Below are positions 3,805 to 10,453 of a DNA stretch of 64,000 bases, in pieces (position 1 is the first letter of the stretch; the number at the start of each line of letters is the position of its first letter). Under the pieces are notes generated by a model. It searched no databases, was not told where the DNA came from, and worked only from the letters and a program-made list of their open reading frames with translations. The DNA is from Gamsiella multidivaricata. Taxonomy: Eukaryota > Mortierellomycota > Mortierellomycetes > Mortierellales > Mortierellaceae. The stretch covers positions 1 to 64,000 of the forward strand of contig NW_026251812.1 of the NCBI RefSeq assembly GCF_025024155.1, written 5' to 3'. The position numbers were made by a program, and so were the translations under genes.

Positions 3805-5418
3805 ATGACAACCCCACGGCTTAGCATGTGGTCGACAGGGGTATCTCGAAAGCATATCGCCCATATCCTTCCATGGGTGGCAGCAATCCTGGCCTTGATT
3901 CTGGTCGTTTCAACCCCTGTACACTCAATACCCGTCTTACAATCAAGGGGTCAGGACGATCTTTATCGCCGGGCCGATCCTCTCACCCCCAATGCGCCCA
4001 AGAAACCCAATGCCACAGGGAAAAAGCCGCAATATAGCTTCGAGATCTTCAATCCAGAGCCTCACGATGTCTGGATATCCGGCACTATTCAGAGCTTCAG
4101 CTGGGCTGACCTATCACTTCCACCAGGTGCAACCTTCGACATCACCTTGATCCCAGTGGAAGTAGAAACAAACCCAGAGGCAAAGAAAATCACACGGCGG
4201 CCCATTCTGCGTTACGTTGACGCGATGACTCGGGTCCTGGATTTTGTGGTACCTTATGATCTGATCTCGAGGGACCAATTGATCCATGAACAGGAGGGCG
4301 ACGCCAAGGTCGTGTTGGAAAATGAACAGACAACTCCCGAACAAGACATATACGAAGACGCTCCATCGATAGCAAGGCCATCGGCAGTAGCAGCTCCGGA
4401 TGACACGACAACAGACGCACCTTCACCAACGCAACCGCCCAAGAATATCCGATCGTTGGCTCGACTCTATTTCACAGCGTATGAGGGTAGGACGAACAAG
4501 ATACTGGCGCAGATGAGCGTCTTTCCGATTGAGATTCAAAAGGACCACGTGCGGGACCAGCGGACGCTGTTAGCTCCGGCAGATTTGTCTTCGCCAATCC
4601 CAGGTGTTGACGAGACCACGGAGGAATTGTCGAAGAAGGATACGAAAATCACTCACTTCGGGGACCACACCCAAGGCGTCGACCAAAATCAAGGGACCGA
4701 GAGCGAGGAGGATAAGGACGAGGACGACGTTGATGATACCGATGATGAGGATGACCTGTTTTCGGAACTCAATGGTGACGATGACGATGTCACTGATACC
4801 CCTGCACCAGAACAAATGGAAAGCGGAGAGGATGAGAGCGTGTTTATGGAGAGTAACTCTACGGATATAGGGCACATGGGTCATGATTACCAAGATTTAG
4901 AATCCGAGGACGAGGACGAGGAGGGCGAGGGGGACGAGGACGAGGAGATGCACCATCACGGAGATCACATCATGGACCCAGACCATTTCGAAAACGACGA
5001 GGATGTCCAGCTTTGGCAGGATCACGCGGATGATCCAGGCTATAACCCGCCGATCAAGGTGATCGATGCAGGCATGATCGCGATCACACATTGGATCGAT
5101 AACAAAGAACGCTTCTTTGTAGGAGCACCCTATGTCTTTGGCTGGGAGTTCCCACAGGACGCTAAAGGATTGACGGGCGTAGTCAATGTTTATGTCGAGG
5201 ATGCATTCACTGCAAAGAGATACGACATTGCGGTGGGTAACTTGCCGAGTGATATCCGGTTCATGTATCTGCGTCCGACAGCGATCATGATGAGCGCTAG
5301 CCCCAAGAAGAGGGTCTATTTGCGTGCCAGAGTCGAGATGGATCTGTTCAAGGGGGGCAACATTCATCGGTACACGGGCTTTTCGAAGGTATTCTGGGTA
5401 GAGCGCGGGGCGCTCTAA
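3805..5418 (+). CDS. Secreted or membrane-anchored acidic protein with Kre9/Knh1-like motif
   Basis: Intronless, 537 residues. Residues 8-42 contain a basic start followed by a long hydrophobic run (WVAAILALILVV) and a possible cleavage site near THSI/VHS, so the protein enters the secretory pathway as a signal peptide or N-terminal anchor. The start is 3805 or the second Met at 3826. Around residues 72-130 FNPEPHDVWISGTIQSFSW recalls the beta-sandwich of Kre9/Knh1-type cell wall proteins (P..G..W..G....I.W pattern). The middle (about residues 290-400) is Asp/Glu-rich with a short His cluster (MHHHGDH). The last 120 residues look like a second beta-rich domain. No catalytic motif is seen. A wall-associated role is inferred only from the secretion signal and this motif; the gene itself is certain. 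Confidence 0.75.
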   Translation: MTTPRLSMWSTGVSRKHIAHILPWVAAILALILVVSTPVHSIPVLQSRGQDDLYRRADPLTPNAPKKPNATGKKPQYSFEIFNPEPHDVWISGTIQSFSWADLSLPPGATFDITLIPVEVETNPEAKKITRRPILRYVDAMTRVLDFVVPYDLISRDQLIHEQEGDAKVVLENEQTTPEQDIYEDAPSIARPSAVAAPDDTTTDAPSPTQPPKNIRSLARLYFTAYEGRTNKILAQMSVFPIEIQKDHVRDQRTLLAPADLSSPIPGVDETTEELSKKDTKITHFGDHTQGVDQNQGTESEEDKDEDDVDDTDDEDDLFSELNGDDDDVTDTPAPEQMESGEDESVFMESNSTDIGHMGHDYQDLESEDEDEEGEGDEDEEMHHHGDHIMDPDHFENDEDVQLWQDHADDPGYNPPIKVIDAGMIAITHWIDNKERFFVGAPYVFGWEFPQDAKGLTGVVNVYVEDAFTAKRYDIAVGNLPSDIRFMYLRPTAIMMSASPKKRVYLRARVEMDLFKGGNIHRYTGFSKVFWVERGAL

Positions 5419-5660
5419 GCCCTTTGCATTTAATAAAAAAAAAACATAATACCAATTTCGAATACGATCAGTTGTCTAATGAAGGGAAAATTTCCAGGTA
5501 CCGAAAAAGTTTTCAAGGCTGAAATCTTCCCAAGCAGCTGGGATGGTAATCCTTCATTTGTGAGGACATGAAGATAGAAAGACGAGCACTCCCAACAACG
5601 GTAGAAGGTGCGGGACAGCACTCTGAGGGGGACGCAGGAGGCAGGGACGGGGTGCAAAAG

Positions 5661-5734
5661 TGCTGAAACCAGGGTTCGAACCTGGGACCTTGCCTTAGTG
5701 AGAGGCATGTGATAACCAACTACACCATTCCAGC
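5661..5734 (-). tRNA. tRNA-Val (CAC), left arm of palindrome
   Basis: A 74-base cloverleaf can be folded by eye. Acceptor stem GCTGGAA/TTTCAGC has one G-T pair, the D arm is GTGT...TCAC, the anticodon stem TGCCT/AGGCA is perfect with loop CTCACTA (anticodon CAC), the variable loop has five bases, and the T stem CCAGG/CCTGG encloses TTCGAAC. The discriminator is A. Position 37 is T, where a purine is normal. The copy is identical to the tRNA in the right arm. No intron. A short T-run follows. Confidence 0.8.
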
Positions 5735-6620
5735 GATAGAGGTCGTATTTGACGAACAATGCGGAAAGCCAATTATACTCGGTTATCATACTTCGACCTT
5801 CGACCCCATTTTGGCTCCATTTTGGCCCCCGCGCGTTGGTTTCGCGGTCGAATTGGTATCCAAGGCCTCCCTTGGTGTCCTCTCGAGGCTCTGAGTGGAT
5901 AAGAGAGCCAGACAATTTGCTCCGCACTGGAACGTGGCGTAAAAACCGTGATAAATGGGTCAATCACCCACGACTGCTGTCTATCTGAACAAATTCGTAT
6001 AGAAGAAATCCACAGGTTAGTACCTCACAAATTATATAGGGTAGAGCACGCGTTTTTGTTTAAAGGCAGATCTAATCTTTTTGTTTTTTTTTTTTGTTTG
6101 ATTGTTTTGCGACGGGCGATGTATTACTGTAGCACTTTTTGGAAAACCATCTTACCATGAACTGGCTGCAGCACTCATGCTTTCGCTCCTTTCCAAGAGT
6201 ATATGTACTCTAGATCACTACTATGATGAGTAACGCATTAACTTGCAGTTTCTTAAAAAAAAAAAAAAAAAAAAAAAGATTAGATCTGCCTTTAAACAAA
6301 AACGCGTGCTCTACCCTATATAATTTGTGAGGTACTAACCTGTGGATTTCTTCTATACGAATTTGTTCAGATAGACAGCAGTCGTGGGTGATTGACCCAT
6401 TTATCACGGTTTTTACGCCACGTTCCAGTGCGGAGCAAATTGTCTGGCTCTCTTATCCACTCAGAGCCTCGAGAGGACACCAAGGGAGGCCTTGGATACC
6501 AATTCGACCGCGAAACCAACGCGCGGGGGCCAAAATGGAGCCAAAATGGGGTCGAAGGTCGAAGTATGATAACCGAGTATAATTGGCTTTCCGCATTGTT
6601 CGTCAAATACGACCTCTATC

Positions 6621-6694
6621 GCTGGAATGGTGTAGTTGGTTATCACATGCCTCTCACTAAGGCAAGGTCCCAGGTTCGAACCCTGGTTTCAGCA
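6621..6694 (+). tRNA. tRNA-Val (CAC), right arm of palindrome
   Basis: Reverse-complement twin of the left-arm tRNA with the same stems, the same CAC anticodon and the same T at position 37. The internal A-box (TGGTGTAGTTGG region) and B-box (GGTTCGAACCC) are intact, so it should be transcribable by RNA polymerase III. TTTT follows four bases after the 3' end as a possible terminator. A Glu-CTC reading was considered, but its stem would not pair. Confidence 0.8.
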
Positions 6695-6762
6695 CTTTTG
6701 CACCCCGTCCCTGCCTCCTGCGTCCCCCTCAGAGTGCTGTCCCGCACCCTCATCGTTTGGAA

Positions 6763-6905
6763 GAATATAATCTCACTCCCCTGTGAGATCTTATTCTCAC
6801 ACCCTCCGTGAGATTATCCCTCGTTTTGTCATCTCACAGGGTGTGAGCAGCATTTTTTTGTTCACGGGGAGGTGAGCGCTATATTCTCACGGGGATAGTC
6901 TGTGA
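6763..6905. repeat. Left subterminal cluster of CTCAC/GTGAG motifs
   Basis: Within about 140 bases, TCTCAC and GTGAG(A/C/G) alternate at least nine times, often as short palindromes such as CTCAC(N)4-10GTGAG. The first 60 bases match, inverted, the right end of the element at 9911-9972. Arrays like this are common binding sites for a transposase or host factor at element ends. The binding role is inference. Confidence 0.6.
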
Positions 6906-8024
6906 GGCCTCTTTTTTTTTAAAAAAAAAACACTCGTTTATTGTTCAAGGTCTGTTTCAGCAGGATGGAATCCTTTGGATGGTCGCGAACCAAGACCTGC
7001 TTCGTTGCCAGACGCGTCCTGTAGCTCCATGAGCCCCTGTCTCCGTTTCAGCGAGATTGAGAGGTTGTTGCTTCAAATATAGGTGTTATCCTGTTGCCTC
7101 TTGCCACGGTAGGCAGTGAGGCTGCTAGTCAATCAGAGATATTATTCAGAAGCCAGTTGCTACAAACGACCTTTCGTGCAGTGCCATACGCGTCGCTCTT
7201 GTCCTGTGCATCGAAAAATAATCCAACGTTTACAGTCCAATTGAATGAATCTCCCTAGTTCCTAGTTCTGGAGCGTCAAATATGTGAGTTAAGTCCAGAT
7301 GCACTTCTCAGTTCATCATGGAAGAAGGTTGAAAAAGCGAACGCGTGGTGGTACCTCCAAATGTTCCTCAATTGCAATGGCGCTTTGGACAATGCACAAG
7401 GTGAGCATCAAGAGCTTACTGATAGCAATTGTTTATGAGTATCTAGTCTATGAGTAAGGCGTACCTCAGGGCATTCTCCGGATACCCAGTCTGGATAGAC
7501 CATAGACTATAGCCTTGTATAACGGACTCTGATGAATATGTGGTGTTGCTGATGCTGCTGATGCTTATGACCGTTGATTACCCATCGTGATTTAGCAATA
7601 TCTCTCTTCTTTTCTTTCTACATAAGACAACCCCTAATCATCCTGACTTAAAGTCTAGCATTGCATACAAACAGCCTTGCACATTTCGAAAAAGAAAAGA
7701 GGACGAGCTGCAGATGGGCGTACAGGAGTGCGGCATAGACACAAGGACGAGCAAAAGGACGAGCAGAGAGAATGACACAACATGGCCGTTGCAGGGGATT
7801 GCCTGGCTATGGGGATATGGTCAAGAAGAGAATTTGTAGACTATGAGGCGAGTTATATACTCTATGCAAGATGAAGGACACGGTGAAATGCGCTCTTTCT
7901 CGCAACCTTTTCTCTGTGCACACTCTAACACTCTACAACCAGCATCACTGTTGCAAATTACCTTCCTCGCCAGCATTCCACTACACGCTACGCTAACTAC
8001 AATGATCAAGGCACAGAGAAACGA

Positions 8025-8642
8025 ATGTACATTCTGCAACTGTTCCAGGGACTGCTGGACAAGAAAGCGGCAATCCAGACACAGGAACACCGCATTGAAC
8101 AGGGTCTCCCGGTCAGGGACGAGGACAGACCTGTGCCATTGACCAAGTCAGGAAAAAATCATTTGATTCGGTCGCACTCAACAGTGCCAGTTCAAGTGAA
8201 AAACGTCCTTTTAAATGTGTTCGTCCAATTTGAAAGGCGCGAGAATAGAAGCATGGTTTTCGTCTGCGTCTGCAGAAAGCCATTCCTGACAAGGGATAGC
8301 CTGAGCAAGCATTACAAGCGGGTCTGCGCCCATTCCAACATTCCGACCAACGTTCCAAGGCTTCAACTTATTGACAGCGCTCAAGTTCTCCCTGATGATT
8401 TGGAGGTCGTCAATGCCTCAGGTATATCCGATGACGAGGTTGATGGGGAGAACGACAAAGGCGATGAAGCGTTTAGCGGCAGCAATGCACTCATATTCAA
8501 CACTAACGACACTTCGGCTACTTCAATGACATTTAATTTAAGAAGAGTGGTTGGTATAACTATCCGAGAGTTCATACAGGGCTTGGGCATTGCAAATACT
8601 CAACAGCAACATGCACAGCGCATGCAAATCATGGCGTTTTAA
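8025..8642 (+). CDS. Element-borne ORF with zinc-finger-like Cys/His motif
   Basis: 205-residue ORF inside the TIR-bounded element. Around residues 81-105, CVCRKPFLTRDSLSKHYKRVC gives Cys-x-Cys...His-x4-Cys spacing similar to a degenerate C2H2/C2HC finger, preceded by a basic stretch. Residues 125-160 are acidic (ISDDEVDGENDKGDE). After the TAA at 8640 the same frame continues open to about 8862 with low-complexity Ser/Thr sequence and a basic SRKRT, suggesting the original protein was longer or the stop is recent. I recognise no catalytic domain. It may be a DNA-binding accessory protein of the element or a captured gene fragment. The ATG at 8025 is the first in frame, but an upstream exon cannot be excluded. 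Confidence 0.45.
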   Translation: MYILQLFQGLLDKKAAIQTQEHRIEQGLPVRDEDRPVPLTKSGKNHLIRSHSTVPVQVKNVLLNVFVQFERRENRSMVFVCVCRKPFLTRDSLSKHYKRVCAHSNIPTNVPRLQLIDSAQVLPDDLEVVNASGISDDEVDGENDKGDEAFSGSNALIFNTNDTSATSMTFNLRRVVGITIREFIQGLGIANTQQQHAQRMQIMAF

Positions 8643-9380
8643 GAGGAACAACGCACGCTGTTCACAGCCATGGAGCAATGGATCCTGAGCTCTATTGCCC
8701 AGACTGCAGCAGGTCGAGGGCAGGTGCAAGCTGCTTCTACTTTTGTTTCTGACACCGGACCTTCCAGTCCGGTTTCTACAAGTAGAAAGAGAACGTGCTC
8801 TGACGCCCCTCACTTTGGAACATTCAGGCCCCCTAGTCGTATGTCTCCAACTGAAAATAAGTAAAATAAAAATGGCGGTTTGGTGGAGCGAGTGTAGATC
8901 GGTATAAAAATTGGGCAGATGTATAGACGAGAAAGCGCATGGTCTCGTCTTGCTTATCATTTTCCACGACAGTGAAGGCTAGGTAACTCCCTACGCGTCG
9001 GCATGCTTGCAAATGATTGGAGTATCTGGGGTGTCGAAGGATCTAGAGTGAATAGGGTATTTTATTGGGCGAATGCTGCTATGTGGTTCTATGTGTAGAT
9101 AGGGTTTATATACTAGTTGCATCGGTGTCAACAGTGCACTGGAATATTGTAGAAACTGGGCGAAGCACTGACGACACCAAAGCATACTAGATCTAGCGTT
9201 AAACCTTTGCAAAGATCCACGATAGTGATTTTGAGTCGTAAAGTACTACTCCAATATGATCACAAACGACTGTCTGTTTTCTCTTTTCCATAGCACCTTG
9301 TCATTCAACTTCGGAGTGGAATCTGGTTCAATCCTGCCTCTTATTGGATTGGACAAAGGGGTAGATTCTCCAGCGACGAG

Positions 9381-9750
9381 ATCACCGCACTACTGGTAAT
9401 CAGCAATTTAGTGCGTCGCCCAGGTGTGTCAAGAGTGTAACACACCTGGTATCAGAGAACGGAGCTGAACTACAGCCTATATCAAGGAAGCGATGGCCAA
9501 AAAGATCCGGATCCTTAAACGAATTGAGGTGATGGGAATAGATGTGTGATAGGAGCAAGAGCAATTTATTAAAAATTACGTATTGGGTACGGTGGCGCGT
9601 GGTCGGGGCAAAAGGAAAAAAAAGTGCGGGCTGGCATAGAGAGAGAGGTGTACAAAAGTGCGCACTGGTAGAGAGAGAGATGTACTAAGGTTTGCACTCT
9701 TGACACACCTGGGCGATGCACTAAATTGCTGATTACCAGAGTGCGGTGAT
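9381..9750. mobile_element. MITE-like element with 56 bp terminal inverted repeats
   Basis: 9381-9437 (starting ATCACCGCACT) and 9695-9750 (ending AGTGCGGTGAT) are inverted copies with only a few differences. The 257-base interior has no coding potential but contains two tandem GAGAGAGAG-plus-TGTAC blocks and a further copy of the inner TIR motif (ACACACCTGG). Size and structure fit a miniature inverted-repeat element. No convincing target duplication is visible. It lies inside the larger TIR-bounded element. Confidence 0.7.
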
Positions 9751-9845
9751 AACGGGGTGTCATACTAGGTGTGTCCAGGTGCTTAAGTACTTAGAAACCC
9801 AGGTACTAATCATAAAGCGTCCTTTATATGAAGGAAGGATGCCCG

Positions 9846-9972
9846 TGAGATTATCTTTGTTTCGCTATAATAACAGGGTGCGAGAAGAATATTTCACAAT
9901 GTGCTTTGGATAATCTCACGGGGGGTGTAAGAATAAAATCTCACGGGGGGTGAGGTTATATTCTTCCCTATT
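9846..9972. repeat. Right subterminal region with CTCACGGGG/GTGAG motifs
   Basis: Counterpart of the left subterminal cluster: CCCGTGAGATTATC, then TCTCACGGGGGGTG twice, then GTGAGGTTATATTCTTCCC. The last 60 bases match 6763-6823 in inverted orientation. Confidence 0.55.
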
Positions 9973-10453
9973 GTTGGTAGGAGTGCTCGTCTTTCTGTCT
10001 TCACGTCCTCCTCACAAATGAAGGATTACCATTCTAAGGTCGTTGGTACCTAAATTTTTGGTTTCTGGAGTCAAACAGTACGTCATATTGAAGCAAGATG
10101 GACTTTCACTTTGAGCACCAGTGCAAAAGGAATCTTTGCTTGGATAGCGTGGGCGGACGGTGGATATTTCAGATGGACGAACGAAAGAAGGATGCCTATT
10201 GGATAGGAGCGTCAGATACAGTCATTTCATTTGAATGTGTTGTAGTGCCGATGTCCTGTTCTAGGATGAGTGCCCTACCTAGTTTAGTGGCTCACGCGAG
10301 AGAGACGCGCCAAACTGCGCATCAGTTAGGCGCACGGCGGCTAAATACGTCATATTGGTTTGCTGTACGAACATCCTCCCACGCTTTCTTTATTCTCTCA
10401 CAACCTCCAACTCGCTAGTACTCATCCTCATCTCTCATCTCTCATTCTTCGTC

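What the first reader, a model, noticed from the sequence alone, without database searches (positions are those of the whole stretch)
5607..6748. Near-perfect 476 bp palindrome carrying a tRNA-Val gene in each arm
Arms 5607-6082 and 6273-6748 appear identical in inverted orientation, with a 190 bp spacer bounded by T- and A-runs. Two outward-facing tRNA genes inside a foldback structure is an unusual arrangement. Perfect identity implies very recent origin or active homogenisation. It could be a foldback transposon that hitch-hikes Pol III promoters, or inverted duplication driven by template switching at the homopolymers.
Basis: seen in the sequence. Interest (0 to 1): 0.78.

Follow-up and report, generated by a model that had tools for sequence, protein, structure and literature searches.

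The report
Transposon-split palindrome of two tRNA-Val genes
In a soil-fungus chromosome a valine tRNA gene sits in both arms of an old inverted duplication whose inner parts are letter-for-letter identical, most likely because one arm keeps being copied onto the other, although one arm was later cut in two by a jumping gene of a family that lands beside tRNA genes.

Summary
In detail: 5607-6082 and 6273-6748 are identical inverted copies (476/476), each with tRNA-Val(CAC), 190 bp apart. The search of the 37.5-Mb assembly finds the arm only here; only the tRNA recurs once. It is therefore not a multi-copy foldback transposon. The genome is a Mortierella-type fungus. The structure is larger than reported. 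The right arm is interrupted at 6759 by a 3.2-kb element with 61-bp terminal inverted repeats. Beyond it, 9973-10032 is an inverted copy of 5543-5599, with no third copy found. The outer arms differ (4 of 57 letters plus a 3-nt gap), the core at 0 of 476 (Fisher p=1.2e-4). So the duplication predates the insertion and the core was homogenised later; arm-to-arm gene conversion is the best reading. Four more tRNA pairs (Ile, Lys, Thr, Asp) lie in inverted repeats of 99.8-100% identity: in all 10 of 155 inventoried tRNA genes. Origin by fold-back template switching at the T/A runs is plausible but untested. In passing: a tRNA-headed SINE parked about 110 bp upstream of tRNA genes; the inverted-repeat element downstream (19 of 19 testable places).

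The parts
5540..5606 (+). left outer arm; diverged inverted counterpart at 9968-10035; also the uninterrupted (empty) site
5607..6082 (+). left core arm, 476 bp
   Evidence: identical to reverse complement of 6273-6748
5660..5734 (-). tRNA-Val(CAC)
6083..6272 (.). spacer, 190 bp, no second match in the assembly search; begins in a T-run and ends in an A-run
6273..6748 (-). right core arm, 476 bp
6621..6695 (+). tRNA-Val(CAC)
6749..6758 (-). right-arm stub between core and insertion, already diverged from the left arm (includes a degraded target-site copy, my reading)
6759..9967 (.). inserted element, 3.2 kb, 61-bp terminal inverted repeats (6759-6819 / 9908-9967, 90% identical), one 205-aa ORF of unknown function (8025-8642); family lies downstream of tRNA genes
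9968..10035 (-). right outer arm beyond the insertion
   Evidence: 9973-10032 matches 5543-5599 inverted, 88% with one 3-nt gap; the few letters at either end by the looser alignments

Best explanation
This is an old local inverted duplication of a tRNA-Val(CAC) locus, with arms of about 540 bp around a 190-bp spacer. A transposon of a family that lands downstream of tRNA genes later inserted into the right arm, 63 bp past the tRNA. Since then the 476-bp inner arms have been made identical again by arm-to-arm gene conversion, which stops at the heterology made by the transposon, so the outer arms kept their differences. Shown: the single locus, the identity of the core, the split right arm, the divergence of the outer arm. 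Inferred: the order of events and gene conversion as the homogenising process. Guessed: the founding event, a fold-back template switch between the T-run and A-run, perhaps at a replication fork paused at the tRNA gene.
For: Core 476/476 identical. The outer segment 5543-5599 has one other match in the assembly search, 9973-10032 inverted, directly after the inserted element. Leaving out the insert restores an alignable arm. 4 of 57 versus 0 of 476 differences, Fisher p=1.2e-4; at the outer divergence 33 changes would be expected in the core. The core border lies 10 bp from the insertion. The element's two terminal repeats differ at 10% and its flanking target copies are degraded, which suggests it is not fresh. 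The third tRNA-Val(CAC), on C79, shares no flank with the arms, so strong constraint on 400 bp of flank is unlikely. Four other tRNA inverted repeats of 99.8-100% identity show that the state recurs. Passages read: palindromes of ape sex chromosomes undergo arm-to-arm gene conversion (PMC11168930); yeast forks pause at tRNA genes (PMC8194067).
Against: Only about 57-70 outer letters carry the age argument. Two terminal repeats of one element can differ from the start, so the 10% is a weak clock. No reads, no second strain and no relative's DNA could be examined, so conversion was not observed as such. No diverged outer arm was found at C103, C49 or C68-Thr (within the stretches fetched), and at C94 none shows in the two 1.2-kb pieces, so those four may simply be young.
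Confidence: 0.72

Rival explanations
1. Very recent inverted duplication: the core was copied a short time ago by fold-back template switching, and the outer similarity is an unrelated older repeat.
For: 0 of 476 differences; sharp borders; homopolymers at the inner borders. The other tRNA inverted repeats are near-perfect too, without diverged outer arms seen.
Against: The outer segment is in register with the palindrome, was found only on the two sides, and 10 bp of diverged arm lie between the core and the insertion. A recent copy would have had to land exactly between the spacer's A-run and a diverged arm remnant.
Confidence: 0.15
2. Foldback or other mobile element that carries tRNA genes.
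For: Foldback anatomy; tRNA genes elsewhere in this genome attract or form mobile elements; two of the other tRNA inverted repeats do contain dispersed repeats (C68-Thr and C94-Asp share a 205-bp repeat at 97.6%).
Against: Arm, spacer and outer arm each found at this locus only; the C7 arm has no match of 100 bp or more in the other fetched loci and none to the other four arms; no direct repeat of 4 nt or more within 10 nt of the outer ends.
Confidence: 0.03
3. Assembly artefact (hairpin read or repeat mis-join), or polishing that made similar arms look identical.
For: No reads were available; the locus is 5.6 kb from a contig start; five near-perfect cases in one assembly could share a technical cause.
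Against: A hairpin read would mirror the flanks as well, yet the flanks differ on the two sides, the spacer is single-copy and the right arm holds an insertion. Arm and spacer sizes differ in all five cases, and one other pair is only 77% alike.
Confidence: 0.1

Closest known systems
Arm-to-arm gene conversion in ape sex-chromosome palindromes (PMC11168930, passages read)
   Same: Inverted arms with a spacer, near-identity kept by intrachromosomal conversion
   Different: There arms are at least 8 kb by that paper's definition; here 476 bp with a tRNA gene in a fungus, and conversion is inferred from one locus
Head-to-head / tail-to-tail tRNA gene pairs surveyed in 74 eukaryote genomes (PMC2888827, passages read)
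   Same: tRNA gene pairs in opposite orientation
   Different: That survey finds most adjacent pairs parallel, with head-to-head bias in some species; here same-type pairs within 10.5 kb are 8 inverted and 2 direct, and five have long near-identical flanks
Fold-back inverted duplications at double-strand breaks in yeast (PMC11724301, abstract and passages)
   Same: Short inverted microhomologies prime synthesis and leave an inverted copy
   Different: Reported sizes are 2 to about 150 bp, most under 14; here about 540 bp, and the founding event is not seen
Dada DNA transposons (PMC3706591, passages) and TRE3/Skipper-2 retrotransposons (PMC5006619, PMC5911963, passages)
   Same: Mobile elements that use tRNA genes as landing sites; TRE3/Skipper-2 lie downstream, as the element at 6759-9967 does
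   Different: Dada inserts inside RNA genes with 6-7-bp duplications; TRE3 and Skipper-2 are retrotransposons. The element here has terminal inverted repeats, lies outside the gene, and its transposase was not identified

Membership tests
Palindrome homogenised by arm-to-arm gene conversion | Near-identical inverted arms with spacer | tested here: met
   476/476, 190-bp spacer
Palindrome homogenised by arm-to-arm gene conversion | Arms older than their identity suggests | tested here: met
   Outer arms 4/57 differences plus a gap, split by an insertion
Palindrome homogenised by arm-to-arm gene conversion | Same substitution in both arms in one lineage but not in another | not testable with these tools
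   No strain or relative DNA is held for this genome
Foldback transposon | Several copies with the same ends | tested here: not met
   One locus in the assembly search
Foldback transposon | Target-site duplication at the outer ends of the arms | tested here: not met
   No exact direct repeat of 4-12 nt within 10 nt of the outer ends 5540/10035
Dada tRNA-targeting transposon (for 6759-9967) | 6-7-bp target duplication inside the RNA gene | tested here: not met
   Lies 63 bp past the tRNA; the degraded target copies fit about 8-9 bp (my reading by eye; the scoring there does not fix the length)
Mutator-like (MULE) transposon (for 6759-9967) | MULE transposase | tested here: inconclusive
   No Pfam transposase in three tested ORFs, two of them from related copies; long terminal repeats and a 9-bp target copy would fit, from recall

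The most novel reading that the evidence does not exclude
In this fungus tRNA genes are recurrent seeds of inverted duplication: stalled replication at a tRNA gene triggers fold-back copying, and the resulting tRNA palindromes (five near-identical cases, 10 of 155 inventoried genes) are then kept identical by conversion, so that tRNA gene families evolve in concert through palindromes rather than tandem arrays.
Probability: 0.28. Interest if true: 0.65.

Novelty: new member of a known kind. Interest (0 to 1): 0.48.

Why it matters
The transposon-split arm gives an internal clock that tells homogenisation from recency, which identity alone cannot do. If the pattern holds, small tRNA palindromes would be a route for concerted evolution of tRNA genes and a natural test of whether paused forks at tRNA genes create inverted repeats.

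Tried and rejected
Foldback mobile element: rejected, single locus. Similarity directly outward of the core border (5300-5606 against 6749-7060): none above shuffles; the arm was found again only beyond the insertion. Diverged outer arms at C103, C49 and C68-Thr: none found in the stretches fetched. A tRNA-upstream motif (TAARTGCA) as a shared feature: absent within 400 bp upstream of both tRNA-Val copies. The Rfam scan of the window gave three tRNAs and nothing else. Pfam gave no transposase for the three ORFs of the element family that I tested.

The only such control is the 64-kb window and the loci fetched around tRNA genes by then. There, inverted repeats of at least 200 bp and 98% were the tRNA-bearing ones at C7, C103 and C49, plus a 354-bp pair in L008 that holds no tRNA itself but shares the symmetry centre of the C68-Thr repeat. 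The loci were chosen around tRNA genes, so this is a weak control. No DNA of a related species was available: the collections on hand are prokaryotic, viral, phage or plasmid, and the assembly search offers no relatives; I did not scan those collections.

Full report
Observation. The two stated segments are perfect inverted copies, 476 of 476 letters, with one tRNA-Val(CAC) gene in each, facing outward. The search of the assembly finds the 190-bp spacer only here; a T-run and a 23-base A-run bound it. The assembly has 37.48 Mb in 180 contigs, and the window is the start of contig C7, 103.8 kb long. A 537-residue protein of the window finds 42 matches, one of them the window's own protein. Every match that bears a name is from Mortierella or kin (genera such as Linnemannia, Podila, Dissophora; kinship recalled), at 38-68% identity over the aligned part; several matches are unnamed (only the 7993 best candidates were scored). 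So this is a nuclear contig of a Mortierella-type fungus.

Copy number. The arm is found only at this locus. The single further match, 73 bp on C79, is a third tRNA-Val(CAC) gene without shared flanks. Arm, spacer and outer arm are each single-locus in the assembly search, which skips very common words and simple repeats. A dispersed foldback element is not supported.

The palindrome is longer and older than it looks. Directly outside the right core arm, 6759-9967 is a 3.2-kb element with 61-bp terminal inverted repeats, 90% alike. Just beyond it, 9973-10032 matches 5543-5599, the sequence just outside the left core arm, in inverted orientation. The assembly search finds no other copy of this outer sequence. 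When the insert and a short putative target copy are left out, the right arm aligns with the left arm through the insertion point. The left arm thus shows the uninterrupted site, and the insertion went into an already existing right arm. The outer arms differ by 4 of 57 letters and a 3-nt gap, and the 10-bp stub between core and insertion is also diverged. The core differs at 0 of 476 (Fisher p=1.2e-4; about 33 changes would be expected at the outer rate). Identity of the core is therefore not explained by youth of the duplication. Gene conversion between the arms, bounded by the transposon heterology, explains all of this. The weak points are the short outer arm and the lack of any second genome.

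Other tRNA pairs. I built an inventory of 155 tRNA genes and 25 SINE heads from the Rfam search and four A-box/B-box patterns. Labels and the removal of rows that did not look like tRNA genes were by eye, the patterns fit only some tRNA genes, and the Rfam search scored 63 of 1149 candidates, so the inventory is incomplete. Same-type pairs on one contig are 3 inverted and 0 direct within 1.5 kb, 8 and 2 within 10.5 kb, and 16 and 17 at any distance.

Of the 8 close inverted pairs, five have near-identical arms. C7 Val has arms of 476 bp. C103 Ile has 375 bp, 100%, spacer 207. C49 Lys has 1058 bp, 100%, spacer 5160. C68 Thr has at least 1895 bp with one substitution and one single-base gap, plus a further 354-bp stretch at 99.7% about the same symmetry centre; arms of about 3.75 kb are inferred, as part of the right arm was not read. 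C94 Asp has 563 bp with one difference, spacer about 2.0 kb. The other three (C68 Lys, 77% over a 322-bp self-complementary stretch; C52 Pro and C108 Pro, about 110 bp) share little beyond the tRNA.

Are the five one element? The C7 arm matches none of the other four and no other fetched locus over 100 bp or more. C103 likewise has no match of 100 bp, though it holds a 78-bp repeat found in four other loci. The C49 arm has an 840-bp relative at 98% on C92. The C68-Thr arm holds many dispersed repeats (54 matches of 100 bp or more), and one of them, 205 bp at 97.6%, is also in the C94 arm. So two of the five arms include dispersed repeats; this weakens the case that a single tRNA-driven process made all five.

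Direct pairs. Of the two direct pairs within 10.5 kb, C159 Arg shares only the tRNA and C111 was not fetched. A direct pair 14 kb apart, C46 Met, does share 857 bp at 99.8%, so duplication of tRNA neighbourhoods is not only inverted. The inverted excess at close range is suggestive, not proven. In other eukaryotes most adjacent tRNA pairs are parallel (PMC2888827, passages).

Mechanism. Shown: structure, single locus, split arm, diverged outer arm, identical core. Inferred: the order of events and gene conversion. Guessed: the founding fold-back. The inner borders lie in complementary homopolymers about 160 bp apart, which could have primed a snap-back. Yeast fold-back insertions use inverted microhomology (PMC11724301, abstract and passages), and yeast forks pause at tRNA genes (PMC8194067, passages).

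The insertion in context. The terminal repeat of the element gives 38 matches, 24 places after merging neighbours. 19 of the 24 have an inventoried tRNA gene within 6 kb, and in 19 of 19 the repeat is on the downstream side; both ends of some elements count. The remaining five have no inventoried tRNA within 6 kb. In the palindrome it lies 63 bp past the tRNA.

Literature. In the capped listings of ten library searches I saw no paper on tRNA palindromes in Mortierella, or on a SINE or inverted-repeat transposon parked beside tRNA genes in this group. The library holds open-licence papers only, and no paper was read whole.

Noticed in passing
L021:2146-2969 (C68); 31 head matches genome-wide: A tRNA-headed SINE of about 824 bp with a poly(A) tail and, in L021, a 17-bp target duplication. 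23 of 31 head matches lie 105-137 bp upstream of an inventoried tRNA gene and face away from it; 29 of 31 do so within 3 kb. Matched parts of the heads are 99-100% identical, so it looks young. I saw no printed description in the listings.
   Followed up: partly
window 6759-9967; 24 places, among them L025, L036; also L035, L039: An element with terminal inverted repeats GGAAGAATATAA... that lies downstream of tRNA genes, 19 of 19 testable places of 24. Its transposase was not identified.
   Followed up: partly
upstream of tRNA genes in L005, L006, L009, L010, L019-L024, L034-L036, L038, L039, L042, L044: Motif TAARTGCA, mostly two or more times, 57-133 bp upstream of 20 of 48 fetched tRNA genes (one further copy at 339); 64 occurrences in 319 kb of fetched sequence in all. 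Possibly an upstream Pol III promoter element; the SINE of L021 inserted into it.
   Followed up: partly
C165:40795-40933 and C166:5954-6092: tRNA-Val(AAC) followed on the same strand by tRNA-Gly(TCC), pattern matches 30 bp apart, twice in the genome (types by eye): possible co-transcribed pair.
   Followed up: no
C27, C93, C104: Second SINE heads about 950 bp from the tRNA, behind a first SINE: apparently repeated insertion at the same parking site.
   Followed up: no
L009:5280-7800 (C49): The spacer of the Lys inverted repeat holds gene-like sequence (by eye) and a diverged inverted copy of part of it (71% over 262 bp).
   Followed up: no
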